NCBI GenBank assembly: GCA_036172665.1
Contig: CM069875.1
Location: 13,596,001 to 13,660,000, forward strand
Direction of reading: 5' to 3'
DNA from: Prosopocoilus inquinatus
Lineage: Eukaryota; Arthropoda; Insecta; Coleoptera; Lucanidae
Length of the DNA: 64,000 nt
A program made the translations under genes and the position numbers. The notes beneath the pieces are model-generated. The model ran no database searches and was not told the origin of the DNA. It saw only the letters and a list, made by a program, of their open reading frames with translations. Shown here piece by piece: positions 26,327 through 61,437 of the stretch; position 1 is the first letter of the stretch, and every line of letters begins with the position of its first letter.

Positions 26327-27411
26327 TACTTCGGAAATTAATTTTGAGCCTAGAGCAACCGAGAACTAAGACCGGAGGACTTAAAAATATCTTCCTCCCC
26401 TTCTGCGCGGATGTTTTAAAATTGAGATAATCTATGATTGAGATTGAGAATATGCCCACTAGAGTCTAGTCTATCATTTGTAGAATTAGTAGTGTCTACC
26501 AATACCGCCAGAAAACTATACCTGAGCCAACCTGAGCAAAGAAACACAACTTTACTGAGCATATACGCGAAACTGTCAAAGAAGCCGACATCTGTCAAAA
26601 ATGACATCACGGATATAAATCCGTTTCCAGTTTTTGGCGAAGTGGCGTCAACGCAGAAACACTTGAACTAACAAATTGCCCAGGCCGTATAGGGACGTCG
26701 TCTCGTGAAATCTAGTAGGTCGTGAATAAAACAATCATATGTCGTTTATGTCCAATGATGTAATAAGGTTAGATGGAGTCTAGCGTCATTTTGAATAAGT
26801 TTTAACATTACAGAGAGAAAGATAATATGAGCATTCCCTAAGAGTAACAAAGATCAGAAATGGCAGATACCTCGTGGTTTGGGGCAAATGAAAGCTTAGT
26901 TCAGATGCATCCGGATACGCAAAACACTAGCCAATCAAAAATAAATCGCAATAAATATTTTGCATATTCGGAATCACAGGGGTTTATATCTGTTGCCACA
27001 GTTTTAAACGCAATTATAATTCCCCCCAGGTCGCTGGGATGGCAGTGATGGCACTGTATTTACAGCAAGCTGTAATCCTTAGCATATTTTTAAATTATCA
27101 TGGTTACCTTTCATTGATTTTGAAAAGTTTGGAATCGGTTGTCAGAAGCCAAAGTATTAATTCCATTTCTTATTTAATTGAACGTTTAAATTTCGTTTGC
27201 GGCCATCCCAGGCGAACGAACAGGACAATTTGTGATAAAAATAAGGTAAGAGAGAATGCTAAGCGAAGAGTGTACTTTTTCGGCTATCATGGCCGCGCGG
27301 CCTTATTAAGCGCCGGAACGAAAAACGATCCGAGCAAACGTGGTCGTAATTTATAGAAAGAAAATCACAAATTGTCCGTTTATTCTTCTGGAATAGCCCA
27401 GGGGAATAGCC
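26327..27411. other. Non-coding DNA
   Basis: No gene supported. A short inverted repeat is present: GGACAATTTGTGAT at 27224-27237 and its complement at 27363-27376, with similar flanks (CCCAGG on both outer sides), possibly a small MITE. Confidence 0.5.
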
Positions 27412-27427
27412 CTAAAGTTTTTGGGTT

Positions 27428-27516
27428 GCAGTGAGAATGTTGAGCTACGTCTCTGCTGATGAAGCCCCAAGCAGGGCTGAAACAGCTGTCCAGAGGCTGC
27501 TCGAGGTTCTCACTGC
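27428..27516 (+). ncRNA. Hammerhead ribozyme A (type I)
   Basis: Stem I outer helix GCAGTGAGAAT/GTTCTCACTGC, inner helix TTGAGC/GCTCGA, loops TACGT and GCT, closing CTCTG/CAGAG. Core CTGATGA at 27456-27462. Stem II AGCCC/GGGCT with loop CAAGCA. GAAA at 27479-27482. Stem III is ACA/TGT with a 2-nt loop (ACAGCTGT is self-complementary). Cleavage is predicted after the GTC ending at 27490. All conserved core residues are present. Confidence 0.9.
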
Positions 27517-27739
27517 AATCAAAAACGATTTGCACAAAATTTTTCTAAAATCTTTCATTATGCTTTGACAGCAAGCATGGCCGCCTTGCATGGGGGACTC
27601 ATTAGGAGCAAATCCCGCTTCAATTTGTCTATCCTACTGCAATGTTAGGTCAAAAAGCGATAGTAAGATGTCGCTATTTTATATGTTCATCATTCTTACA
27701 TCGCATTTGCGAATAAATTGGGCAAGTCGTTTTTGGTCT

Positions 27740-27828
27740 GCAGTGGGAATGTCGAGCTACGTTTCTGCTGATGAAGCCCCAAGCAGGGCTGAAACAGCTG
27801 TCCAGAGGCTGCTCGAGGTTCTCACTGC
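27740..27828 (+). ncRNA. Hammerhead ribozyme B
   Basis: Same fold as copy A. Core CTGATGA; the closing pair of stem I is T-G (TTCTG/CAGAG) and one outer stem I pair is G-T in place of A-T. Predicted cleavage after 27802, exactly 312 nt from copy A. Confidence 0.9.
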
Positions 27829-28051
27829 AATCAAAAACGATTTGCACAAAATTTTTCTAAAATCTTTCATTATGCTTTGACAGCAAGCATGGCTGCCTTG
27901 CATGGGGGACTCATTAGGAGCAAATCCCGCTTCAATTTGTCTATCCTACTGCAATGTTAGGTCAAAAAGCGATAGTAAGATGTCGCTATTTTATATGTTC
28001 ATCATTCTTACATCGCATTTGCGAATAAATTGGGCAAGTCGTTTTTGGTCT

Positions 28052-28140
28052 GCAGTGGGAATGTCGAGCTACGTTTCTGCTGAAGAAGCCCCAAGCAGGG
28101 CTGAAACAGCTGTCCAGAGGCTGCTCGAGGTTCTCACTGC
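28052..28140 (+). ncRNA. Hammerhead ribozyme C
   Basis: Core CTGAAGA: the variable position 7 is A, which the CUGANGA consensus allows. All paired regions as in copy B. Predicted cleavage after 28114, again 312 nt on. Confidence 0.88.
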
Positions 28141-28363
28141 AATCAAAAACGATTTGCACAAAATTTTTCTAAAATCTTTCATTATGCTTTGACAGCAAGC
28201 ATGGCCGCCTTGCATGGGGGACTCATTAGGAGCAAATCCCGCTTCAATTTGTCTATCCTACTGCAATGTTAGGTCAAAAAGCGATAGTAAGATGTCGCTA
28301 TTTTATATGTTCATCATTCTTACATCGCATTTGCGAATAAATTGGGCAAGTCGTTTTTGGTCT

Positions 28364-28452
28364 GCAGTGGGAATGTCGAGCTACGTTTCTGCTGAAGAAG
28401 CCCCAAGCAGGGCTGAAACAGCTGTCCAGAGGCTGCTCGAGGTTCTCACTGC
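28364..28452 (+). ncRNA. Hammerhead ribozyme D
   Basis: Core CTGAAGA, GAAA and GTC intact. Predicted cleavage after 28426, 312 nt from copy C. Confidence 0.88.
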
Positions 28453-28671
28453 AATCAAAAACGATTTGCACAAAATTTTTCTAAGATATATTTATTGTCA
28501 TCAAAAAGTACACGATATGTTCAAATATAAAAGAACAAAGCTTTTATTTGTAAACAAAAGAAAATATACAAAAATTAGTAGCTATTATAATATAATATGG
28601 AATCTGAAGTGCTTCGATATAATACATTTAAGAAAAGATTTACAGATACAAAGAAAGTAAACGTTGCATAT

Positions 28672-34400: not shown

Positions 34401-34506
34401 AGATTAGGATTTGCTCCTAATATGTCCCCCATGCAAGGCGGCCATGCTTGCTGTCAAAGCATAATGAAAGATTTTAGAAAATTTTTTGTGCAAATCGTTT
34501 TTGATT

Positions 34507-34592
34507 GCAGTGAGAACCTCGAGCAGCCTCTAGGCTGTTTCAGCCCTGCTTGGGGCTTCTTCAGCAGAGACGTAGCTCGACATTCCCACTGC
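34507..34592 (-). ncRNA. Hammerhead E, cleavage site deleted
   Basis: Core CTGAAGA, stem II and GAAACAG are present, but a small deletion removes GCTGTC-type sequence, so the cleavage triplet is lost (GAAACAGCCTAGAGG). Predicted inactive. Confidence 0.8.
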
Positions 34593-34816
34593 AGACCAAA
34601 AACGACTTGCCCAATTTATTCGCAATTGCGATGTAAGAATGATGAACATATAAAATAGCGACATCTTACTATCGCTTTTTGACCTGACATTGCAGTAGGA
34701 TAGACAAATTGACGCGGGATTTGCTCCTAATACGTCCCCCATGCAAGGCGGCCATGCTTGCTGTCAAAGCATAATGAAAGATTTTAGAAAAATTTTTGTG
34801 CAAATCGTTTTTGATT

Positions 34817-34905
34817 GCAGTGAGAACCTCGAGCAGCCTCTGGACAGCTGTTTCAGCCCTGCTTGGGGCTTCTTCAGCAGAGACGTAGCTCGACATTCCC
34901 ACTGC
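34817..34905 (-). ncRNA. Hammerhead ribozyme F
   Basis: Complete fold with CTGAAGA, GAAA and GTC. Predicted cleavage between 34843 and 34842 on the minus strand. The inner stem I is CTCTG/CAGAG, all Watson-Crick. Confidence 0.88.
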
Positions 34906-35129
34906 AGACCAAAAACGACTTGCCCAATTTATTCGCAATTGCGATGTAAGAATGATGAACATATAAAATAGCGACATCTTACTATCGCTTTTTGACCTGA
35001 CATTGCAGTAGGATAGACAAATTGAAGCGGGATTTGCTCCTAATATGTCCCCCATGCAAGGCGGCCATGCTTGCTGTCAAAGCATAATGAAAGATTTTAG
35101 AAAAATTTTTGTGCAAATCGTTTTTGATT

Positions 35130-35218
35130 GCAGTGAGAACCTCGAGCAGCCTCTGGACAGCTGTTTCAGCCCTGCTTGGGGCTTCTTCAGCAGAGACGTA
35201 GCTCGACATTCCCACTGC
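35130..35218 (-). ncRNA. Hammerhead ribozyme G
   Basis: Complete fold, core CTGAAGA. Cleavage between 35156 and 35155 on the minus strand, 313 nt from copy F. Confidence 0.88.
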
Positions 35219-35443
35219 AGACCAAAAACGACTTGCCCAATTTATTCGCAATTGCGATGTAAGAATGATGAACATATAAAATAGCCGCCTTGCATGGGGG
35301 ACATATTAGGAGCAAATCCCGCTTCAATTTGTCTATCCTACTGCAATGTCAGGTCAAAAAGCGATAGTAAGATGTCGCTATTTTATGTGTTCATCATTCT
35401 TACATCGCAATTGCGAATAAATTGGGCAAGTCGTTTTTGGTCT

Positions 35444-35532
35444 GCAGTGGGAATGTCGAGCTACGTCTCTGCTGAAGAAGCCCCAAGCAGGGCTGAAACA
35501 GCTGTCCAGAGGCTGCTCGAGGTTCTCACTGC
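35444..35532 (+). ncRNA. Hammerhead ribozyme H
   Basis: Complete fold on the plus strand in the inverted half of the array. Core CTGAAGA, cleavage after 35506. Confidence 0.88.
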
Positions 35533-35694
35533 AATCAAAACCGATTTGCACAAAAATTTTTCTAAAATCTTTCATTATGCTTTGACAGCAAGCATGGCCG
35601 CCTTGTATGGGGGACATATTAGGAGCAAATCCCGCGTCAATTTGTCTATCCTACTGCAATGTCAGGTCAAAAAGCGATAGTAAGATGTCGCTAT

Positions 35695-36399
35695 TTTGTT
35701 TAAAAAATTTTTCAAAAAAAATTTTACAATTGACAGAAATATTATTGCTCGTTTATTACAATTAAATTAAAAAAAATGAGAGATAAAGAAAAATGAAGGA
35801 TGGATTAACGTTAATTTAAAATACCCTATGGCCCAAAATAATACTCGGCATTCAGTCTAACTAGGCAATGACGTCAGTGAATCTAATGACGGCACACGAT
35901 CACGTTGTTGCCAAATTTCTATATTGACAAATAGAGGCTAAGGTTAAGTACTAATCTTTGAAATCAATTTTATTCATTGTATTTTTTTTTAATTTATTAT
36001 ATAATTATACATCAAATACAGTGCAGACTTATTTCCTGAAGATGTACCTAAATTGTACATGGATCATGTCAGAAACCGACAGACACACATTTCTAATTCG
36101 GTATGAATTAATCTATTACATACAGCGTGGAAACTAAGTAGCGGATAAAATCCATAACTCCGTTAATATTTGTAATAAACCAAAAATCTAAAAGGGGTAT
36201 AGCGATTCAAATTACAGCGCATAAAAAGAAATATATTTTGAGATATTTTCATGATTTTTTTTTAAGTTATGACGTCATCAAGATTTTTTTTAAATGACAA
36301 CCTATATTTTTTATTTTTTATTTCCGTGGGTTTTTTTAACCTACTTTCAACAGTATAAAATTTTAAATCGATTACATAACAAAAAATTCAAGAAAAACA
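35695..36399. other. Non-coding flank of a Tc1/mariner element
   Basis: AT-rich, no gene. GTGGAAACTAAGTAGCGGA with TAACTCCGTTAAT near 36126-36172 looks like the end of another DNA-transposon family, without a partner found. Confidence 0.4.
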
Positions 36400-39262: not shown

Positions 39263-39731
39263 ATGTCCGGAATTGCAGCAGCTCGTTTGGCCGAGGAACG
39301 GAAAGCGTGGAGAAAGGAACATCCATTTGTAAGTGATTTTAAATATGTTGTCAAAACCTATTAATATGTTAATGCTTTTTTAAGGGTTTCGTAGCAAGAC
39401 CATCAAAAAATCCAGATGGAACCTTAAACCTCATGAATTGGGAGTGTTGTATTCCTGGTAAGAAAGGAACACCGTGGGAAGGCGGCCATTACAAACTGAG
39501 GATGATATTCAAAGATGATTACCCCAGCAGTCCTCCCAAATGCAAGTTTGAACCTCCATTGTTCCATCCAAATGTGTATCCCTCTGGAACAGTGTGCTTA
39601 TCATTGCTTGATGAGGAAAAAGATTGGAGACCTGCGATAACTATCAAGCAAATTCTTCTAGGCATCCAGGACTTGTTGAACGAACCCAATGTTAAAGATC
39701 CAGCCCAAGCTGAAGCATATACTATTTATTG
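39263..39731 (+). CDS. Ubc9: SUMO-conjugating enzyme Ubc9 (first two coding exons)
   Basis: Ubc9 takes SUMO from the E1 enzyme as a thioester and passes it to lysines of target proteins, mostly in the nucleus. Exon 1 (39263-39328) encodes [20 protein letters not shown] plus PF. A 56-bp intron (GTAAG...TTTTTTAAG) follows. Exon 2 (39385-39731) covers the UBC fold with HPNVYPSG, the catalytic cysteine in TVCLSLL (residue 93, as in the human enzyme) and [16 protein letters not shown]. It ends at AEAYTIY with a split codon TG|GTGAGT, which the family resolves as Cys. The last exon, about 20 residues, is missing from the sequence I could inspect. CTAG just before the start codon may be a 5'-UTR splice acceptor. 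No frameshift or stop is seen, and this looks like the live host gene. Confidence 0.95.
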
Positions 39732-41030
39732 GTGAGTTTAGTTATGTGATCAAAAAGACGTAAAGTAAAATCACAAAGGTATTAACTTATTAAAAGAATC
39801 ATTTTTTTAACAAATTGATTGAAGGGATTGTTGGCTCTTGGTGAAACATTTCTTGCATCTAACAGAATCTATAGCATTGCAGCAATGTGACTTCTAGCAT
39901 TTGAAGCAATAGCTTAATTTGTAGCAAATGCATTAGATGGCATTTATTGACAATTAGATCAAGGTAATGATATTGCATCTAGCGGTTGTCTCGTTCCCAT
40001 TTTATATGCAGTTTGAAATATCCTCCCCGCAAATGTAACTCGTGACATCACACGAAACTTCTATCCATCAGGGTGATGTAGATAGAGTAAGTGTTAATCT
40101 GTTTTCTAAAGCTTAATCTAATTCACTAAAAATGAAATCAATTCTCTGGTCCTATTGATCAATTAATGCATAAATCTCGTTAATATGCCCAATGGAATTT
40201 ATCACGTAACGAGATATGCACTCTCTGTCCCCTCCGCTGATCAAGGCAACCTTCTAATACACAGTCCAGCTCTACCAACCTTGAATTAGATGGCCTTTAT
40301 TGACAGTGCTTTAACAGCATCCAGCGTAAACATTATATGCTAGATATTCTGTAGCTGTTCCTAGAAGCATTGTAGTCTAATTTCAAAGCTGTCAAATCAT
40401 CTAGCTGCTTTATGTGCTAGATTCTGTTAGTCGCAAATATTGTTAAAAAATTAATAAATGTAGACACTTGGTATTTTTTTACTTATAGCATTTTCAGTTA
40501 AGTACTCTGGTGCACTCAGAACATTCTAGTGTTGTGCAGCAATTCATAATAGGGGGCTGTGAAAGGTTTTTAGACTAGGCTCAAAAATTCTAATAAAATT
40601 TTTTAGCCTATGATATCTTTTCAAATTTTAATACTTTTTATATTCCCAGGTTTACGATTTCTGCAGTTTATTGTGTTAAAATTATACCTAAATGTTGTAT
40701 TTTCGAAACATAAATTACATTTTTAAATTTCAAATAAAAAATTTAGTTGCCGGTATGTCAGATTTCAAACTTATTATTTAAAATAAAAGTACAGATTGCT
40801 AGTGTGGAATTGTCATAATATTTTTCAGGTCAGATTCTGGCATCTATTAAAACTCATGTAAGCAACCGAAAGTAACTAGAATACAGCCTACTCTGACGAG
40901 AAAAAAGATACTATCTGTTTACTTCTGTATATTTTGTTTGAAATTGGTTGGTACTTCACGTTGTCACTAATTTTTACGTGTCAGTCAAAATTTAAATTGT
41001 CATATTTGCAATTTGCATCAAATTTTAACG

Positions 41031-46839: not shown

Positions 46840-46925
46840 GTTTAAACAGCGACATCCTTCCATCACATTTTGACCTAACATTGCATTAACAATGACAAAT
46901 TCAAGCCAGTTTGCTACATAATAAC
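46840..46925 (-). repeat. Decayed fragment of the 312-bp ribozyme repeat
   Basis: The minus strand matches the part of the unit around TTGTCTATCCTACTGCAATG through AAAAAGCGATAGTAAGATGT, with many substitutions (plus strand AGCGACATCCTTCCATCACA at 46848). The hammerhead part is absent. An old copy. Confidence 0.65.
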
Positions 46926-48719: not shown

Positions 48720-51512
48720 TTAATGTGCAATCACTGCTGAAGAGTAAAGAGCTGATTTCGGTATTTTTTTTAAAGTAGTCAACGTTGACGTACGAGTATC
48801 ATGGGATATTTTATTGTAAATTATTGAAGAATTATAATTAAAGGACCTTTCGAAGAGGGTAGTATTGTGCATAGGGATATGTAATCTACTAGTGCGTCTT
48901 AAACTTAAATCATGTAGTCTGTATCTAGTTATTAATAAAGCACTTAGATAAGCAGGACACGAAGTTACAAAAACTTTATGAATTAAACAGGCCATATGAA
49001 ACAATCTTCTATTTCTCATATTTAGCCATTTAGCTTCCTTTAATTTATAAGATACATGGCCCCTTCTCCTCTATCCATAAACGAATCGAAGACACGAGTT
49101 TTGGATTTTTTGAATTCTTGCAGCAGATAGAGCATCTAAACAGGGGCCATAGACAGCATCACAGTAATTGAAGCAAGATAGAACTAACGCTTCACATAAC
49201 TGAATTTTCAGATTAGTAATAAGGAAATGCTTTAAAGTTGAATATGATTTTTGAATTAATTTCTTGACATGAGATGAAAATCTTAAATCACTATCAAAAA
49301 GAACACCTAAGTTTTTTATAGATTCACTGAAAGTCAGTTGAACGTTATTAACTGTGATTTTCAAACTGTCTGTGGCCCTCTGCCGATCTTTAGATCCACC
49401 AAAAACAATTTCCGTCGATTTTACTGGATTAATATGCAACGAATGAGAGACAGAAATTTGACATAGTTGTTCAATATCTTCATTAATCAGGTCAGAATCA
49501 ATGTTTAAGTAAGAATCTTTGAATCTGTAATATAGCTGAGTGTCATTAGCATAAAAGTGAACTTTACAGTTTTTAACCTTCGTATAAAAATCTGCGGTGT
49601 AAAGAGAATATAAAAGGGGAACAAAAATAGAACCCTGAAGAGCTCCCAACTCAACAGCCTCAAAATTTGAGTGTTTGCCATTCACAGTGACAGCCTGCAT
49701 TCTGTTACTTAAATAAGACGATATAAACTTTATGGCCGAATCATCAAAACCAAAATAATGTAATTTAGCACACAACATTTTATGATTAATAGTGTCAAAC
49801 GCTTTCGAATAATCAATGAGAACAAGAACAGTTAAATCACTTTTATCGCAAGCACTAAGTATATCGTCCGTAACTTTTAGCAAGGCGGTACTAGTACTGT
49901 GTCCGGACCTGAAACCAGATTGCATGGGAGGCAATATATTAACTAAATTAATATATTCCCTAACCTGGCCAACTGCGAGTTTTTCGAGAACTTTCGACAA
50001 TATAGGCAAAAGTGAGATGGGCCGTAGATGGGCTGAAAGATGTCACTTGCTTTACTTTCGAAATCGGAGTCAGCAAAGCACGCTTCCACACCTCTGGAAA
50101 TTCACCACGGGTCAAACAAACATTAATTACATGATTAATATATCTGCTTAAGAATGGTAAACACAACTTTATCATTTCCATAGAAATACCATCATAACCA
50201 CAAACATTTGATTTAATACTAAAAATTCCTTTTTCTACAACGTCTTCCGTGACCGATTGGAACTTAAAAAGCGGATAATGATTGTTATTACAGCGATTAT
50301 TTAGATAAAACGATAAAGTATTTAAATCAATATCGCTGCTGACTGAACGCACACAATTTAAGAAAGACAAATTTATTTCATTTGGGTTACTGAAACTATT
50401 AGGTAGAGGTTCCTGAATTTTAGAGCTGATAACATTTAAAGATTTTAGTGTTTGCCATGTCAATTTTTGATTATTCTGACCACATATATATTTTAGATAC
50501 GCCTTCTTCTCGCGTCTGATGGCATTATTAACAAAATTACGCAAATCTTTATAGTGATTCCAATTAGCAACAGATTTAGAGCGTTTGAATTTATTAAGTG
50601 CGTTGTTACGCAATTTTATCATACGCCTGATGGCATCAATTAACCAAGGAGCCAGAACTTTACTGATTCTAACAGTTCTATACGGAGCAAAAATATCAGA
50701 GTTAGGAGGTTATCATTTATAAATACAACTTTGTCATTTAAGTTAATCAAATTGTATAAATTGTTCCAAGGTATGGAGCGTAAATTATCATAAAATTGTT
50801 AGAAATCTATATTACGTAATTACGGTAAGTATACAGTCGCGCGGAAAAACCATGTGTTGAAAAATCCAGAAGGCACAATACTAGTTTATGATCAGAAAAA
50901 TGCACATCAATGACATCCGACTGCAAAACCAATTCAAGATTACTGACGACAAGTACGTCAATTAACGTACTGCTGTAAGCATTAACTCGGGTCGGTTCGA
51001 CCACAATCTGAGTAAGGCCATACGTATCAATCATTGACAAAAAGCGCTTAACGTTTTTACTTACTATATTAAAGAGATTAATGTTAATATCTATATATGT
51101 ATATAACTTCATCCACTGTCGGTAAAATTGTAGTAAGAGATGTTTCTAAGTTTTGGATAAAAGAATTAATATCGGTATGAGGTGGTCTGTAAACTATCCC
51201 AAATGCAATGGACTTTCCCGATAATTTAATATTCAGCCATAATTGTTCAAGAGATAGAGAAAATTCAGTATCTATTATCGAATAACGATAACTATTTTTT
51301 ACGTAAAAACCAACACCCCCACCTCGAGTATTCCTATCCACACGTAGAAAATTATAACCAAGAATTTTTACTGTATCAGAATCAATACCGTGATTTAACC
51401 ATGTTTCCGATACCCCAACTAAATCAAAATTATTACTTAGAACAAGATCTTTAAGCCCGAAAAATCCTGTACCCAGTGATTGCACATTTACAACAGCAAA
51501 CTTAAACGGCAT
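48720..51512 (-). pseudogene. LINE ORF2 (endonuclease and RT), multiple breaks
   Basis: Endonuclease starts at 51512 with NVQSLGTGFFGLKDL, then VGVSETWLN, FGIVYRPPH and, in a shifted frame, TLIDVLVVSN and the catalytic histidine in HFSDHKL. Linker and early RT are at 50622-49960. The main RT block is 50009-49071: PMQSGFRSGHSTSTALLKV, LVLIDYSKAFDTINH, ALQGSIFVPLLYSLY, catalytic HFYANDTQLYY (YAND where most relatives have YADD) and IKNLGVLFDSDL. A C-terminal piece at 49019-48720 has MARL-type wording (RRLFHMACLIHKV). At least four frameshifts separate the blocks. It nicks target DNA and primes reverse transcription when intact. Confidence 0.88.
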
Positions 51513-51973
51513 TAATGAATATCAGCCCGACCTAAAAAACAAAAGAAAATATAAAGATCTAATAAGCATTAATTATGTAATAAAAATCAATCTTGAATCA
51601 GAAATAAATGTAATTCAATGAAATACATGCATTATAGGCATTTAAAAAGCAAAAAGGATGAATGCAAAGAAAGGTGCACACATACATGCATTACTAATAA
51701 TATTAGAAAATAAGTCTTCTTAACTCTTCGACTATAATAATGTAAATTGATAATTTTGTGTAAAGGAGGGCATGCGTGAAATATTAATTCGAAAGCAAAG
51801 TATTAAGATCGTCTGCAGTAAGTAGCCTTGTGGACCTTGCCTGCATCGTTCCAAAAAATGGATCCATCGCTTGTCCAACAACGTGAGACTCCATATTTAC
51901 CAATTGCTTTCTGATACGCTCTATGACGCAAATTAGTCAAATCTTCTTTCAACACTATTTTACTACCTTTTAA

Positions 51974-52419: not shown

Positions 52420-52502
52420 TGCACCAGGTAAATGAAAACTGGTTTAATAGAGTTCGAAGTTTACAAAACCGACCCGTTTGTAATTAAAAATTAAGTTTTC
52501 AA

Positions 52503-53334
52503 ATAACTATAGCTGTTAAAAATTTTTTGTCAGAAATACTTAATAAAGCCTTCAGTTTAAAAACTAGGTACAATATTAAAGATACCTTTAACTTTGTAGA
52601 TCAAATGAAAAATGTCATTCTTCCAAACGATTATGTGTTGATTTCGCTAGATGTAGTTTCACTGTTTACTAACATTCCAATTGATTTGGTTGTTGATATC
52701 ATCACAGAGCATTGGCACAGGATCGAACCTTATTGTAAACTCACTCTTGAACAATTTTTGAAGTGTTTGAATTTCATTTTTAACAACAATTATTTTTCAT
52801 TCAATAACGTAATTTACTTACAAAAATTCGGTGTACCTATGGGTAACCCCATTAGCCCCATATTAGCCCTTATGGTGATGGACAAATTATTAGATTTTGT
52901 TATAGATAAATTAACGTTTCAACTTCCATTTATTTATAAATATGTTGACGATTTGATTACTGCAATCACTTTCAATAGTTTTAATGAACACCTACAATTT
53001 TATATTGAAGAAGAGAAAAATAACAGTGTACCTTTTCTTGACACACAAGTAATTAGAATGGAAGATCAGAGTATACCACTAAACTGGTATCAAAAACCAA
53101 CAGCCTCTGGCAGATATATTAATTTTCATTCTAGCCATACAATGAAACAAAAAATGAATGTAATTATTTCAATGAAAAACAGAGTTACTCATATTAGTCA
53201 TCCGGTCTTTCTGAAAGAAAATTTAGATAAACTATTCAAACTTTTCACTAATAATGGTTTCCTCAAAGCATTAACTTACAGATTAATTTACCAAAACAAC
53301 AAATTGCCATGTCATCTGTATGATAACAATAATG

Positions 53335-53337
<3 letters not shown>
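52503..53337 (+). pseudogene. PLE reverse transcriptase, 5'-truncated
   Basis: Open from about 52500 (AVKNFLSEILNKAFSLK). RT motifs appear in order: LISLDVVSLFTNIP (motif A, first catalytic Asp), KFGVPMGNPISPILALMV (motif B), FIYKYVDDLITAI (motif C, YVDD), then VPFLDTQV and WYQKPTASGRYINFHSSH, which are characteristic of Penelope RT. The N-terminal part of a usual PLE ORF is missing. The frame enters the insert at LYDNNND and would continue as poly-Asn only because of the AAT microsatellite. On the far side of the insert the same frame resumes. Confidence 0.9.
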
Positions 53338-53403: not shown

Positions 53404-53406
<3 letters not shown>

Positions 53407-53553
53407 GGGGACTCATTAGGAGCAAATCCCGCTTCAGTTTGTCTATCCTACTGCAATGTTAGGTCAAAAAGCGATAGTAAGATGTCGCTATTTTATATGT
53501 TCATCATTCTTACATCGCATTTGCGAATAAATTGGGCAAGTCGTTTTTGGTCT

Positions 53554-53642
53554 GCAGTGGGAATGTCGAGCTACGTTTCTGCTGAAGAAGCCCCAAGCAG
53601 GGCTGAAACAGCTGTCCAGAGGCTGCTCGAGGTTCTCACTGC
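53554..53642 (+). ncRNA. Hammerhead ribozyme I
   Basis: Complete fold inside the PLE insertion, core CTGAAGA, GAAA, GTC; cleavage after 53616. The strand is the same as the PLE coding strand, so a PLE transcript could cut itself here. Confidence 0.88.
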
Positions 53643-53829
53643 AATCAAAAACGATTTGCACAAAATTTTTCTAAATTCTTTCATTATGCTTTGACAGCAA
53701 GCATGGCCGCCTTGCATGGGGGACTCATTAGGAGCAAATCCCGCTTCAGTTTGTCTATCCTACTGCAATGTTAGGTCAAAAAGCGATAGTAAGATGTCGC
53801 TATTTTATATGTTGATAACAATAATGATA

Positions 53830-54330
53830 GGAAATTCAGAAAATTAATGCACATTAACTCCCTAAGTAATAAAGTCATCAATATTTTTAAAGATTTTAAA
53901 TTTTTGAACATTGTACAATATAATAATCATACTATCAATAGTGTTTTCACTAAAACAAAGGACAAGACACCTTTTCTGTTTAACAGCGGTCTAGTTTACT
54001 CAATACAATGTACTGATTGCGAAAAGGAATACATTGGGCAAACGGGACAATGGTTAAAAAATCGCATTTCCCAACATAAAAGCGACATTAGAACAGGGAA
54101 GGTAGCTTGTGCCTTGGCATCTCATGCTGGAAAGTGATCACCGATTTGATTTTGACAATACTAGCATTTTAACCCTTGAAAAAAATCTAAAGAACAGACT
54201 TTTCTTAGAAATGATTCTTATTCAAAAGAATGAACATTCTGTCAATTTCAGGTCGGATATTGACAACATCAGCAACATTTATGCTCATATTCTTAGGTTT
54301 GTTAAAAATAAAAAAAATTCATCAAAATAG
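53830..54330 (+). pseudogene. PLE GIY-YIG endonuclease, frameshifted
   Basis: Resumes the PLE frame (RKFRKLMHINSLSN). The nuclease core has SGLVYSIQCTDCEKEYIGQT (the GIY-YIG pair as VYS...YIG, with the PLE-specific CTDC), then the arginine and histidine in LKNRISQHKSDIRTG. The frame breaks near 54125 after ALASHAGK. The other frame continues HRFDFDNTSILTLEKNLKNR to TAG near 54330, so one small indel separates them. It would nick target DNA for reverse transcription. Confidence 0.87.
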
Positions 54331-54639
54331 TTTTCAATTCAGTTAATTTTTTTTTTTTTTATGAACTTCCCTCATTTCGTTACTTAGGGTAATTAGTTTT
54401 CTTAAGTTGTTCAGTTGGTTACTTGATGCTTTGACAATTACCGCCAGTTCCGCCATTGTTCTTGTGCACATGTCTGACTTAAGTAACGTAGTACGACGTT
54501 TTTATATATATTTTTTTTTTTCTTGTAATTTTAACATGTAATCACAGCCCAATTGTGGTTTCAATGATTGTATTTGTTGACCAATTCATCCATCTCTAGT
54601 TGTAAGTAGTGTAACCTTAAGATTTGGATTATTTAACCT

Positions 54640-54706
54640 CTTGTTAACTTTATAATAAACCTCCTGATGAAGTTGTTAAATACAACGAAATATTGAGGCC
54701 TTAAAC
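54640..54706 (+). ncRNA. Candidate minimal hammerhead of the PLE
   Basis: CCTC (54660-54663), CTGATGA (54664-54670), stem II GTTGT/ACAAC with loop TAAAT, GAAA (54687-54690), TATT, GAGG (54695-54698). Stem I is CCTC/GAGG, extended by TTTA/TAAA across an internal loop. Stem III is only about two A-U pairs, so activity would need a dimer. Such minimal type I hammerheads are known from PLE terminal repeats. The AUU triplet would be the cleavage site. Confidence 0.6.
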
Positions 54707-58610: not shown

Positions 58611-58989
58611 GCGCTAAGATATGAATTTGTCGAGCGCACAGCATGAGTCAATTTTGAAAGCGCTGTTGACATGATCGCCAAAAAGTCCGCTTCATATGGA
58701 ACATACTGTATATTATGGTTTATTTCGATTCGTCTTTAAGAGTAGATAAATTAACTATAAACCTAATAGTTTTTGAGATATTGACATTTAAATGTAAAAA
58801 AATGGTATTATTTGTTGTTTTACAGATTAAATGTTTATTAAAATTCGGCATTTAAATTTTATAGTAACAATACATAATCTCTATGGAACAGAAAACAATT
58901 TCCATCTCGAACATATTCCTATTATTTTACACAGGGTGATTCATAAACCCGATGTTTATTTTACTCGGTTAGAGTAAATGGAACACTCC

Positions 58990-59090
58990 GCATGTCAAGC
59001 ACGTCTCTGCTGACGAAGCCCCAAGCAAGGCTGAAACAGCTGTACAGAGGCTGCTCGAGGGTTTCGCTGCAATCAAAAACGATTTGCACA
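58990..59090 (+). ncRNA. Hammerhead J, diverged ribozyme-unit fragment
   Basis: Only the ribozyme part of a unit survives. Core CTGACGA (position 7 is C, allowed), stem II AGCC/GGCT, GAAA, ACAGCTGT and a GTA cleavage triplet followed by CAGAGG. The outer stem I is degraded. Core residues are all present. Confidence 0.65.
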
Positions 59091-59322
59091 AAAATTTATT
59101 AATACCAACATCGAAACTTTTCAAAATGATAACCGTGGTGCTCTTCACATCGTTTTCTATGACAAGGAGATTGATTCACATTTAAATCAACTGTTATAGT
59201 TATTTGTATTATTACTGTTATTTTTATTGGTACTGTTATTGTTGTTGGGTGTTGTGTATTTAAAATAATCAGATAACGTGGACAAAATTAAAATTATTAT
59301 CAGAAACTCGTCGTAACGATTA

Positions 59323-59600
59323 TTATGTCATGTGATCCCAGCGCTCAGTCCAGTTTTCCCGCAGAGTTAAGCGTAATACGGGCCCTTTAAATCTACCCCC
59401 TCCGTGCCTCTCCCTTCTCCTGAGGCACATAGGGTTGATATTTGCCCACATTTTCAGAGGTGACTGGCGCGCGTACAGGGCCTGTTCCACAGAGGGCCCC
59501 GGTGTATCCTTCGCCCCCGGGAGCGTTTTCGCGCCAATTTTTTGCACCTTGCGTACAGGTTGCCTACTTTCGAAATGAATTATTTTAGAAGACCAGTTAT
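59323..59600. other. GC-rich segment, unidentified
   Basis: Noticeably GC-rich (for example CCGGTGTATCCTTCGCCCCC). A 93-codon open frame on the minus strand matches nothing I recognise, so I do not call a gene. Perhaps part of a decayed retroelement. Confidence 0.3.
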
Positions 59601-60095
59601 GCATGTTTCGTACGGCAAGTGAAGGTCACGCGGCATTTTACCTGAATTTTAGATATTTTTAATATATTGTTACGGGAGGCGGCGGGCATCGATGGAATGT
59701 TTAAAAATGATTTTCATTTCTAAAAATTCTATGAAATCTGTAGAATTGTATTTATAAAAAGAATTTTAGAATAATTTTCGAGGCATATTTCCGTGCTTTC
59801 GAAATGAATTCTCTTATTAGAAAATAGGACTCGGCAGATAAATTACTTAATTTGTGGGGATGACTACCATTTTATAGAATTTCGGATATTTAAGGAATAA
59901 ATATATCGTTACTGGAGGCGGCGGATATCGCTGGGATATTTATTTTATTTTTTTTTTATCTGTGGTTGCCCGACGGACAAATGACTTTCATTTCTAAAAA
60001 TTCTACGAAATCTGTACAATTATATTTATAAACAGACTTTTACGATAATTTTCGAGGCATATTTCCATGCTGTCGAAATGAATTGTGTTTTGCCA
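59566..60095. repeat. Diverged tandem repeat, period about 240-270 bp
   Basis: GGAGGCGGCGG at 59676 and 59916, CATTTCTAAAAATTCTA near 59715 and 59989, and TTTTCGAGGCATATTTCC near 59776 and 60047, all in the same orientation. CGAAATGAATT occurs at three points (about 59569, 59798 and 60074). The second unit has an extra stretch of about 30 bp. Confidence 0.8.
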
Positions 60096-60586
60096 AAAAG
60101 GGAACGAAAATAAATTAAATTTTTAAGAAACTATTGCTCGTATTCAGAATGAAGACTACAGTCTCTTTATTTTTAATGAAATACGAGTCAAGTACAAATC
60201 TTTGACTGTAAATGACAACCAAAATTTATTGCTCGCGACAGTACCTATATTATTGTTTTATTTGTATGAAATGCTGTAAGCACTGAATAACTTCAGAGAA
60301 ACTGTAACGCGTCGCCTAACCTTTACTTACTACCTTAATGCTTAATGTCGTTATTGTACAAGTGCATATATGTGACGTGACGGTTAAATTATTGAGTAGG
60401 TTTAGTTTATCTATGTTAATCACAACAGAGTTTACTTCATCTTTGACTTGCGATCATATTCGTCGCTGTATTATCTAAATTCAAACCATGCACAGACACT
60501 TTCTGCTCGGCAAATTCAAAATAAGTTTCATGAAATTTCTGAGTGCTGTGAAATATTTCAATGAAATGAAATTTATGTGAAATATT

Positions 60587-60889
60587 GTCGCTATTTTATC
60601 TGTTCATCACTCTTACATCGCAATTGCGAATAAATTGGGCAAGTCGTTTTTGTTTGCAGTGGAAATGTCGAGCTACGTCTCTGCTGACGAAACCCCAAGC
60701 AGGGCTGACACAGCTGTACAGAGGCTATTCGAGGTTTTCGCTGAAATAAAAAACGATTTGCACAAATTTTTTTTTAAAACTTTCATTATGCTTTGACAGC
60801 AAGCATGGCCGCCTTGCATGGGGCACTTATTAGGAGCAAATCCGCTTCAATTTGTCTATCCTACTGCAATGTCAGGTCAAAAAGCGTTA
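60587..60889 (+). repeat. Single diverged copy of the 312-bp ribozyme repeat
   Basis: Nearly full length, from GTCGCTATTTTATCTGTTC to GGTCAAAAAGCG, with scattered substitutions. Contains hammerhead K. Confidence 0.88.
60656..60742 (+). ncRNA. Hammerhead K, mutated core
   Basis: Core CTGACGA is intact and the cleavage triplet is GTA, but GAAA has become GACA, which changes an invariant core adenine. Predicted inactive. Confidence 0.75.
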
Positions 60890-61437
60890 CTTAATCTTAC
60901 TTAAAATAATCAAGCAATGTTGGTAAAATAAAAATTAAGTATGCATATGGTCTGTGACGTCATAAATCAAATGAGTGTTATTTCTAACAGACCAGAAACT
61001 AGAAACAGACCCAATACAGATTTTCTAAATAAAATCAACGATATTATCGACAAAATATTCCATTAGAAGATGGAATAATGCTGTTTTATGAATTTACAAA
61101 TTTTAAATTTTACTGTGTGTAGGCTTGTTGTGTAACACATACCGAACCTTATATCATCGTAAAGCTTAATCAAAGACGTATTAAATTTAGTCATAAAATA
61201 TAGGGTGTTCCATTTAAACTAACCGAGTAAAATAAACATCGGAGTTATGAATCACCTTGTGTAAAATAATAGGAATATGTTTGAGGTGGAAATTGTTTTC
61301 TGTTCCATAGAGGTTATGTAATGTTACCGTAAAATTTAAATGCCGAATTTTAATAAACATCTAATCTGAAAAACATTGAATAACATCATTTTTTTACATT
61401 GAAATATCAATATCTCAAAAACTATTAGGTTTAGGTA

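What the first reader, a model, noticed from the sequence alone, without database searches (positions are those of the whole stretch)
27412..28484. Tandem 312-bp repeat in which every unit is a complete hammerhead ribozyme
Seen directly: four units with CUGANGA, a 5-bp stem II, GAAA, a mini stem III and GUC, plus a long stem I formed by GCAGTG/CACTGC, TCGAGC/GCTCGA and CTCTG/CAGAG. Predicted cut sites are 27490, 27802, 28114 and 28426, exactly 312 nt apart, so a multimeric transcript would be cut into 312-nt linear RNAs that could be circularised. Known: such arrays define hammerhead satellites and metazoan retrozymes. Inference: this is a retrozyme family of this genome. The stem I pair changes A-T to G-T between units, and inner C-G to T-G, so pairing is preserved despite substitutions.
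Basis: partly seen in the sequence, partly recalled or inferred. Interest (0 to 1): 0.95.

Follow-up and report, generated by a model that had tools for sequence, protein, structure and literature searches.

The report
Ribozyme retroelement inserting from both ends
This repeat, whose units match the RNA-cutting hammerhead ribozyme, belongs to a very large family scattered through a probable insect genome, and most of the copies sampled are two opposed arms that end at two fixed places, which suggests that a likely circular RNA was copied into both sides of one cut in the DNA.

Summary
Four type I hammerhead motifs lie 312 nt apart at 27418-28487; 0 of 200 shuffled windows gave such a motif. 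Rfam's hammerhead models reach only sub-threshold scores. The repeat is a dispersed family: 18,088 exact cores in the 650-Mb genome, reversed control 0. It matches published metazoan non-LTR retrozymes.

New is the insertion architecture. Of 79 islands (75 genome loci plus the window), 51 are head-to-head arms whose outer ends are both sense-3' ends, one near unit 133 and the other near unit 272; one island is alpha/alpha, one beta/beta. The sites fall in the only two unpaired runs of 10 nt or more of the predicted circular fold. Direct repeats of 10 bp or more flank 44 of 51 (26 exactly 12 bp). All 51 inner junctions differ, 30 have an arm longer than one unit, and the two arms share rare variants. 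Best reading: one circular RNA, reverse-transcribed from both 3' ends of a staggered cut, probably by Penelope-type machinery, whose elements show a similar head-to-head signature in print. Self-cleavage, circles and the helper are untested. None of the window's own six islands shows the full alpha/beta pair.

The parts
27418..28487 (+). Array A: 3.4 units of 312 bp (unit 1 = 27730; ends at unit 134, site alpha); single arm, no target duplication found
27428..27516 (+). Hammerhead motif 1 (CTGATGA, cut predicted after 27490)
27740..27828 (+). Hammerhead motif 2 (CTGATGA, cut predicted after 27802)
28052..28140 (+). Hammerhead motif 3 (CTGAAGA, cut predicted after 28114)
28364..28452 (+). Hammerhead motif 4 (CTGAAGA, cut predicted after 28426)
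27850..27871 (+). Site alpha loop in unit 2 (unit 121-142): one of the two long unpaired runs of the predicted circle; one outer end of most sampled genomic insertions
27988..28012 (+). Site beta loop in unit 2 (unit 259-283): the other long unpaired run; the other outer end of most sampled genomic insertions
34407..35285 (-). Copy B, left arm (minus strand), 2.8 units; two intact hammerhead motifs and one with a 3-nt deletion (34507-34592)
35281..35697 (+). Copy B, right arm (plus strand), ends at unit 263; head-to-head with the left arm; 12-bp direct repeat AAAAAATTTTTC on both sides (7 and 4 nt away from the arms)
53404..53816 (+). Copy C: 413 nt (1.3 units, unit 173 to about 270-273) inside a Penelope-like ORF
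53321..53337 (+). 17-bp direct repeat TGATAACAATAATGATA left of copy C; the right one is 53813-53829; an (AAT)n tract lies between the left repeat and the copy
52488..53324 (+). Penelope-like reverse transcriptase segment (RVT_1; insect relatives), interrupted by copy C
53832..54134 (+). GIY-YIG endonuclease segment of the same Penelope-like element; the frame continues across the empty site of copy C
54660..54698 (+). Minimal hammerhead-like motif downstream of the Penelope-like ORF (read by eye; one extra A between core and stem II)
   Evidence: sequence; fold of 54635-54700, z -2.8
58992..59097 (+). Copy D: old fragment that still fits the descriptor, GUA cleavage triplet
60586..60889 (+). 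Copy E: old near-unit-length copy (304 nt); GAA of the core changed, GUA triplet
46844..46915 (-). Copy F: 72-nt relative of unit 190-262 inside another AT-rich repeat family

Best explanation
The array is one copy of a dispersed hammerhead retrozyme family whose sampled genomic copies are mostly two head-to-head arms ending at two fixed unit positions, a structure that likely arises when one circular 312-nt RNA is reverse-transcribed from both 3' ends of a staggered DNA cut by Penelope-type machinery. Shown by sequence: a hammerhead motif in every unit of the array; 18,088 cores in the genome; in the sampled copies, fixed outer ends at unit 121-142 (alpha) and 259-283 (beta), usually one of each per insertion, mostly 12-bp target duplications, inner junctions all different, arms longer than one lap in 30 of 51, and rare variants shared by the two arms of one insertion. 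Predicted: transcripts cut themselves into 312-nt RNAs that a host ligase closes into circles, the route published for other animal retrozymes (PMC7229834). Inferred: a dimeric endonuclease/reverse transcriptase cuts both strands 12 nt apart, each 3' overhang starts cDNA synthesis in one of the two unpaired loops of the same circle, the polymerase may run round more than once, and the two cDNA ends are joined, often at 0-6 nt of microhomology. The helper is most likely a Penelope-like element with a GIY-YIG endonuclease.
For: Hammerheads: 9 descriptor motifs in the window, none in 200 shuffles. Family size: 9,090 + 8,998 exact cores, reversed-pattern control 0. Architecture: of 79 uncut islands from 75 genome loci and the window, 51 are alpha/beta, 1 alpha/alpha (L049; its right flank is the reverse complement of the left flank of L048, so probably a rearranged duplicate), 1 beta/beta, 8 have an end elsewhere, 18 show one arm. 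In the sample not chosen by overall similarity (first 30 core-pattern hits on contig C1) 22 of 32 islands are alpha/beta and none alpha/alpha or beta/beta. Among islands of at least 93% identity, 109 of 117 sense-3' outer ends lie in unit 121-142 or 259-283; these are the only unpaired runs of 10 nt or more in the predicted circular minimum-energy fold. Target repeats: 44 of 51 alpha/beta insertions have 10 bp or more (26 exactly 12, 13 exactly 13) against 8 of 1,008 for mismatched flanks. Nick motif: for the 26 exact-12 cases GTT stands right of the repeat in 10 and its complement AAC left of it in 5, together 15 of 52 edges against 1.8% background. Circle: 30 of 51 have an arm over 312 nt; 0 of 102 arm 5' ends lie within 3 nt of the ribozyme cut (2.3 expected) and they are spread evenly. 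Same template: 20 of 83 rare-variant observations are shared between the two arms of one insertion, permuted mean 0.8%, largest 6.5%, 0 of 500 permutations as high. Mobility: copy C interrupts a Penelope-like frame that reads through at the joined empty site. Penelope link: endonuclease-bearing Penelope elements are most often head-to-head, optionally carry a tail on one of the inverted ends, and have 8-10-bp duplications in the cases described (PMC3846280, passages and discussion); a purified one cuts and extends both strands, starts inside the RNA at two sites and is predicted to dimerise (PMC11167929, parts 1-2 of 4).
Against: No RNA, cleavage or circle data. Rfam gives only sub-threshold hits. 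In all five motifs recomputed, the minimum-energy fold pairs GCUG of the core with CAGC of stem III and lies 6.0-6.1 kcal/mol below the hammerhead fold (the 8.6 left out one stem I pair); the energy model omits core and tertiary contacts. 0 of 6 window islands are alpha/beta: array A is a single alpha arm without a target repeat, B has one end at unit 198. 7 of 51 alpha/beta insertions lack a repeat of 10 bp; 13 of the 26 exact-12 cases have neither GTT nor AAC at their edges. The end windows were set after seeing the ends, and the loops are not unpaired in the whole ensemble (for example about 0.5 unpaired near unit 125). Uncleaved multimers could replace circles as template. The helper rests on likeness: this genome's own Penelope copies could not be examined (and repeats unanswered), published duplications are 8-10 bp, the purified Penelope protein showed no difference in start site between top and bottom strands, and its ribozyme was not needed for insertion in vitro (PMC11167929).
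Confidence: 0.7

Rival explanations
1. Ordinary satellite DNA: the 312-bp unit spreads by unequal crossing-over, and the hammerhead is incidental.
For: Units of array A are 98% alike and in register; tandem runs occur in many loci.
Against: Copies are dispersed over the genome with target duplications, one interrupts a Penelope-like frame, and most outer ends are fixed.
Confidence: 0.04
2. A foldback DNA transposon with fixed ends and an internal satellite, moved as DNA by a transposase that makes 12-bp duplications.
For: Fixed outer ends and a nearly fixed duplication length.
Against: All 51 inner junctions differ and arm lengths run from 25 to 1,718 nt, whereas DNA copying would pass on junctions; the outer ends are two different sequences, not inverted repeats of each other; rare variants differ between insertions but are shared within one.
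Confidence: 0.08
3. LINE-type target-primed reverse transcription with twin priming (mechanism recalled from L1, not from a call).
For: Twin priming also yields inverted arms inside a duplication; LINE-like frames lie in the window (49071-51521; RVT_1 in 49071-50042).
Against: The two-armed structure is the commonest (51 of 79); both ends are internal and fixed; the nick motif appears at both edges; duplication length is nearly constant.
Confidence: 0.15
4. Head-to-head arms arise by self-priming (hairpin), as proposed for rotifer Penelope elements (PMC3846280).
For: Head-to-head copies are the most frequent in Penelope elements (PMC3846280); a few junctions here are near-palindromic.
Against: Self-priming makes the two arms meet at nearly the same unit position; only 7 of 51 meet within 15 nt, 5.1 expected by chance, and it does not explain different ends on the two sides.
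Confidence: 0.08
5. The hammerhead is not active in this family, which spread through uncleaved tandem transcripts.
For: No cleavage data; sub-threshold Rfam score; competing fold; in a Penelope element the ribozyme was dispensable for insertion in vitro (PMC11167929).
Against: Core positions differ less than the rest of the motif in similarity-chosen copies (8 of 1,100 against 144 of 7,600), and 92 of 100 of those copies keep the core.
Confidence: 0.15

Closest known systems
Metazoan non-LTR retrozymes (Cervera and de la Pena 2020, PMC7229834; parts 1-3 of 6 and discussion read)
   Same: Type I hammerhead in each unit, about 300-bp tandem units, low GC, predicted highly paired circle, target duplications longer than 4 bp when present, co-existence with Penelope elements.
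   Different: That paper describes dimers to multimers; a word search of its main text finds no 'inverted', 'head-to-head' or 'twin'. Here most sampled insertions are two opposed arms with two fixed, different ends and mostly 12-bp duplications.
Endonuclease-bearing Penelope-like elements (PMC3846280 passages and discussion; PMC11167929 parts 1-2 of 4 and passages)
   Same: Head-to-head copies, an optional tail at one of the inverted ends, short duplications, AT-rich targets, internal starts at two RNA sites, both DNA strands cut and extended.
   Different: Penelope elements encode RT and endonuclease; three open frames of this repeat give no Pfam family at its cut-off. Their tail is 30-40 nt, whereas alpha and beta lie about 139 nt apart; the rotifer duplications described are 8-10 bp; the purified protein showed no strand difference in start site.
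pDo500 hammerhead satellite of Dolichopoda cave crickets (PMC2837043, passages)
   Same: Insect satellite with a hammerhead linked to processing of multimeric transcripts to monomers.
   Different: Described as satellite; no insertion architecture in the passages seen. Not compared by sequence.
Plant LTR retrozymes (PMC4918200, search listing only; described in PMC7229834)
   Same: Non-autonomous elements with hammerheads and circular RNAs.
   Different: Type III hammerheads, LTRs, 4-bp duplications (as described in PMC7229834).

Membership tests
Type I hammerhead ribozyme | CUGANGA ... GAA core, stems I-III, NUH at the cut, open stem I | tested here: met
   9 motifs in the window, 0 in 200 shuffles
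Type I hammerhead ribozyme | Curated covariance model reaches its gathering score | tested here: not met
   Best 19.8 bits against 52 for RF02275; no hammerhead at E<=1 in the whole window
Type I hammerhead ribozyme | Loop I - loop II tertiary contacts | not testable with these tools
   Internal loop in stem I and 6-nt loop II seen, no test of contact
Type I hammerhead ribozyme | Self-cleavage at the predicted site | not testable with these tools
   Needs in vitro transcription
Metazoan non-LTR retrozyme | Units of about 170-400 bp in tandem, each with a type I hammerhead | tested here: met
   312-bp period, 3.4 copies; motifs in each unit
Metazoan non-LTR retrozyme | GC below 50% | tested here: met
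   42.9%
Metazoan non-LTR retrozyme | Target duplications longer than 4 bp when present | tested here: met
   44 of 51 alpha/beta insertions have 10 bp or more; array A itself has none
Metazoan non-LTR retrozyme | Highly self-paired circular RNA predicted | tested here: met
   Circular folds -110 to -115 kcal/mol; linear unit z -7.7
Metazoan non-LTR retrozyme | Linear and circular RNA of unit length in tissue | not testable with these tools
   No RNA data
Metazoan non-LTR retrozyme | No LTR, primer binding site or polypurine tract | not tested
   Not searched for; insertions are arms of one unit
Mobilised by Penelope-like machinery | Head-to-head copies with two different ends | tested here: met
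   51 of 79 islands alpha/beta
Mobilised by Penelope-like machinery | Both strands cut by the same endonuclease in AT-rich DNA | tested here: inconclusive
   Same motif enriched at both edges, but 13 of 26 have neither; repeats 85% AT against 64% of the loci
Mobilised by Penelope-like machinery | Penelope copies of the same genome share duplication length and nick motif | not tested
   The own-genome search did not complete (and repeats)
Penelope-like element (as a member) | Encodes RT and GIY-YIG endonuclease | tested here: not met
   Unit of 312 nt; three open frames of the repeat give no Pfam family at its cut-off. It would work as a passenger, not a member
Plant LTR retrozyme | Type III hammerheads in LTRs with 4-bp duplications | tested here: not met
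   Type I topology, mostly 12-bp duplications

The most novel reading that the evidence does not exclude
A ribozyme-made RNA circle acts as a two-port template: a Penelope-type RT/endonuclease dimer docks on two unpaired loops of one circle, cuts both DNA strands 12 nt apart, and each subunit starts cDNA from its own loop, so that every insertion is built from both sides at once and bears one alpha end and one beta end. This would make obligate bilateral target-primed reverse transcription of a circular RNA a distinct insertion mechanism and would name the mover of animal retrozymes.
Probability: 0.5. Interest if true: 0.9.

Novelty: new variant of a known kind. Interest (0 to 1): 0.8.

Why it matters
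Whether LINEs or Penelope-like elements move animal retrozymes, and how a circular RNA becomes DNA, is left open in print (PMC7229834 discussion; PMC11722881, passages of a 2024 review). The two fixed ends, their pairing, the 12-bp duplications and the shared variants give a sequence-level record of both steps and a precise prediction for biochemistry: two start sites in two named loops of one circle. It also offers a simple reading of the inverted copies that are usual in Penelope elements.

Tried and rejected
Satellite-only, foldback transposon, LINE twin priming and self-priming were weighed and set lower (see rivals). A viral or prokaryotic relative: an exact 26-base piece of the core gives 0 stretches in viral contigs; a looser pattern gives 18, and 0 of 18 have stem II of more than 1 bp, so they read as chance; a pattern in genome contigs gave 0. 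The four Rfam matches of the window (mir-577, MIR169_2 on both strands, CrcZ) were not followed: three sit on the palindrome of copy B, one on a simple repeat. Early on, a test on six window ends suggested starts in unpaired RNA; it was post hoc and is replaced by the genome set. Rows dropped: 94 raw islands became 83 after removing duplicates by flanks, and 4 touching a locus end were left out, leaving 79. Of the 18 one-arm islands, three are relics of copy F's repeat family, two (both in L040) are probably halves of one insertion, and one (L092) hides a short beta arm; I did not reclassify them. The end-class windows (120-146, 262-283) were chosen. The shared-variant test used 51 of 51 alpha/beta insertions and left out unit positions around the two ends. 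The arm-mismatch test used 34 of 51 with at least 96% identity (1.4% within, 2.6% between); it is confounded by age and not relied on. Arm lengths are weakly correlated (Spearman 0.35, p 0.012), unexplained. Copy D was left out of the pair count because its left flank is not part of the copy. L019-L063 were chosen by similarity, L064-L093 by an intact core from one end of one contig, so neither is a random sample.

Full report
What is there. The window holds a 312-bp tandem repeat at 27418-28487. A descriptor of the motif finds nine hits in the window and none in 200 dinucleotide-preserving shuffles. A 92-nt motif folds at z -5.7 and a 312-nt monomer at z -7.7. Rfam is weak: no hammerhead at E<=1 in 64 kb, HH9 at 14.5-19.8 bits against a gathering score of 52 in the 1-kb stretch. 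I read this as models that fit the short stem III and long stem I badly, but that is inference. The best energy fold of the motif hides the core in a GCUG/CAGC helix, 6.0-6.1 kcal/mol below the hammerhead fold in five motifs; whether the real RNA does so is not known.

Other copies in the window. B (34407-35697) is two arms head-to-head; C (53404-53816) is 1.3 units; D, E and F are old pieces. C lies within a Penelope-like reading frame: reverse transcriptase before it, a GIY-YIG domain after it (PF01541, E 1.5e-5). The flanks repeat 17 bp, and joined at the empty site they read through in frame. An (AAT)n tract lies between the left repeat and the copy. A paper on rotifer Penelope elements reports an insertion of one element into an asparagine-rich stretch of another and a preference for simple AT-rich targets (PMC3846280, discussion). 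Among the 120 of 144 protein relatives listed, the rows that bear an organism name are insects, so the host is probably an insect; the genome has 650 Mb in 173 contigs.

Family size. The core pattern occurs 18,088 times in the genome (9,090 and 8,998 on the two strands); the reversed pattern occurs 0 times. These are cores, not insertions.

Insertion architecture. I mapped the unit on 75 own-genome loci and the window. After removal of duplicates and cut islands, 79 islands remain. 51 have two sense-3' outer ends, one near unit 133 (alpha) and one near unit 272 (beta), with the two arms head-to-head. One is alpha/alpha and one beta/beta; L049, the alpha/alpha case, shares an inverted flank with the neighbouring L048 and looks like a rearranged duplicate. 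Eight have one or both ends elsewhere, and 18 show a single arm. Three of those 18 are relics of copy F's family, and two in L040 are probably halves of one insertion. Two single-arm islands of the C1 sample (L092, L093) have the 12-bp repeat 14 and 19 nt beyond the arm; in L092, 12 of the 14 filler nt read, by eye, as the end of a beta arm. L041 has a 12-bp repeat and no second arm. In the C1 sample, 22 of 32 islands are alpha/beta and none alpha/alpha or beta/beta. If the two ends chose sites freely and equally, half of the two-site insertions should be same-site; 51 of 53 are not (p 3e-13). The window's own islands are atypical: 0 of 6 alpha/beta.

Where the ends lie. In the predicted circular minimum-energy fold of the consensus unit there are just two unpaired runs of 10 nt or more, 121-142 and 259-283. 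In the ensemble some of these positions are paired about half the time. Among islands of at least 93% identity, 109 of 117 sense-3' outer ends are in these runs (54 and 55), 8 elsewhere, and 9 outer ends are sense-5'. Inner ends do not mark the ribozyme cut: 0 of 102 arm 5' ends are within 3 nt of it, 2.3 expected, and they are spread evenly over the circle (KS p 0.30).

Target repeats and nicks. 44 of 51 alpha/beta insertions are flanked by exact repeats of 10 bp or more, 26 of exactly 12 and 13 of 13; mismatched flanks give 8 of 1,008. A one-base chance extension of a true 12 would explain many of the 13s (inference). For the 26 exact-12 cases the base after the nick is G in 30 of 52 edges, followed by T (34) and T (37). 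GTT stands right of the repeat in 10 of 26, AAC left of it in 5 of 26, both in 2, neither in 13; 15 of 52 edges against 1.8% background. The likeness of the two edges suggests one enzyme, perhaps a dimer, cutting both strands.

Template. 30 of 51 insertions have an arm longer than one unit, up to 1,718 nt. This needs a circle or an uncut multimer. Rare variants seen in at most two insertions are shared by the two arms of their own insertion in 20 of 83 observations (a shared site counts once from each arm); the mean over permuted partners is 0.8%, the largest 6.5%, and 0 of 500 permutations reach the value. So both arms most likely came from one RNA or from RNAs of one locus. Later gene conversion between arms is a caveat. 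Inner junctions show 0-6 nt overlap in 34 of 51 and are all different.

Constraint. In copies chosen by overall similarity, core positions differ in 8 of 1,100 cells and the rest of the motif in 144 of 7,600 (Fisher p 0.004); copies are not independent, so this is supportive only. Over 51 distinct copies, stem cells hold 8 compensated, 59 one-sided and 23 broken changes; on the ten window copies the covariation does not beat shuffles (80 of 500 as high).

How it likely works. Transcription of an array, self-cleavage and closure, most likely by a host ligase, is the published route for animal retrozymes (PMC7229834). For insertion, the sequence record favours both sides of one staggered cut being extended on one circle, one from each loop. 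Published Penelope work fits in several points: both strands cut and extended, internal starts at two RNA sites, a predicted dimer (PMC11167929, parts 1-2 of 4), and inverted ends with an optional tail on one side plus 8-10-bp duplications (PMC3846280). It fits less well in others: no strand difference in start site was seen in vitro and the ribozyme was dispensable there (PMC11167929). The 12-bp length and the lack of data on this genome's own Penelope copies keep the helper at the level of a good inference.

Novelty. The class is known. The two-site, two-armed layout was not found in print by these searches: retrozyme, head-to-head, inverted and target-primed reverse transcription (three of four terms) gave 7 papers, 6 listed, all 6 with no occurrence of retrozyme; the main text of the central retrozyme paper holds none of 'inverted', 'head-to-head', 'twin'; Penelope with twin priming gave three papers, each naming Penelope once, not read; wider searches are. 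Only open-licence papers are held, and no supplements were read.

Noticed in passing
window 54660-54698: A minimal hammerhead-like motif lies downstream of the Penelope-like ORF, in line with the minimal hammerheads published for Penelope pseudo-LTRs; one extra A sits between the core and stem II.
   Followed up: partly
window 58890-61310: Old copies D and E lie, by eye, inside a roughly 2.4-kb stretch with inverted terminal sequences (about 58930-58980 and 61190-61250), so a DNA element may have captured retrozyme pieces.
   Followed up: no
window 46844-46915; L045:2836-2900; L072:2274-2344: Another AT-rich repeat family carries a 65-72-nt relative of unit 190-262 with shared flanks in three loci; this part of the unit lies between sites alpha and beta.
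   Followed up: partly
window 35204-35458: Rfam microRNA matches (mir-577, MIR169_2) are below their gathering scores and sit on the palindrome of copy B.
   Followed up: partly
window 27200-27400: An inverted pair ACAGGACAATTTGTGAT / ATCACAAATTGTCCG lies just left of array A, possibly a small foldback element.
   Followed up: no
C1 pattern hits: Cores with GUA at the cut, often with CTGACGA or AAATA loop variants, recur among the places listed and look like an older subfamily.
   Followed up: no
window 39373-39735: A ubiquitin-conjugating enzyme exon (PF00179; Ubc9-like by eye), one of few host-gene signals in a window full of retroelement frames.
   Followed up: no
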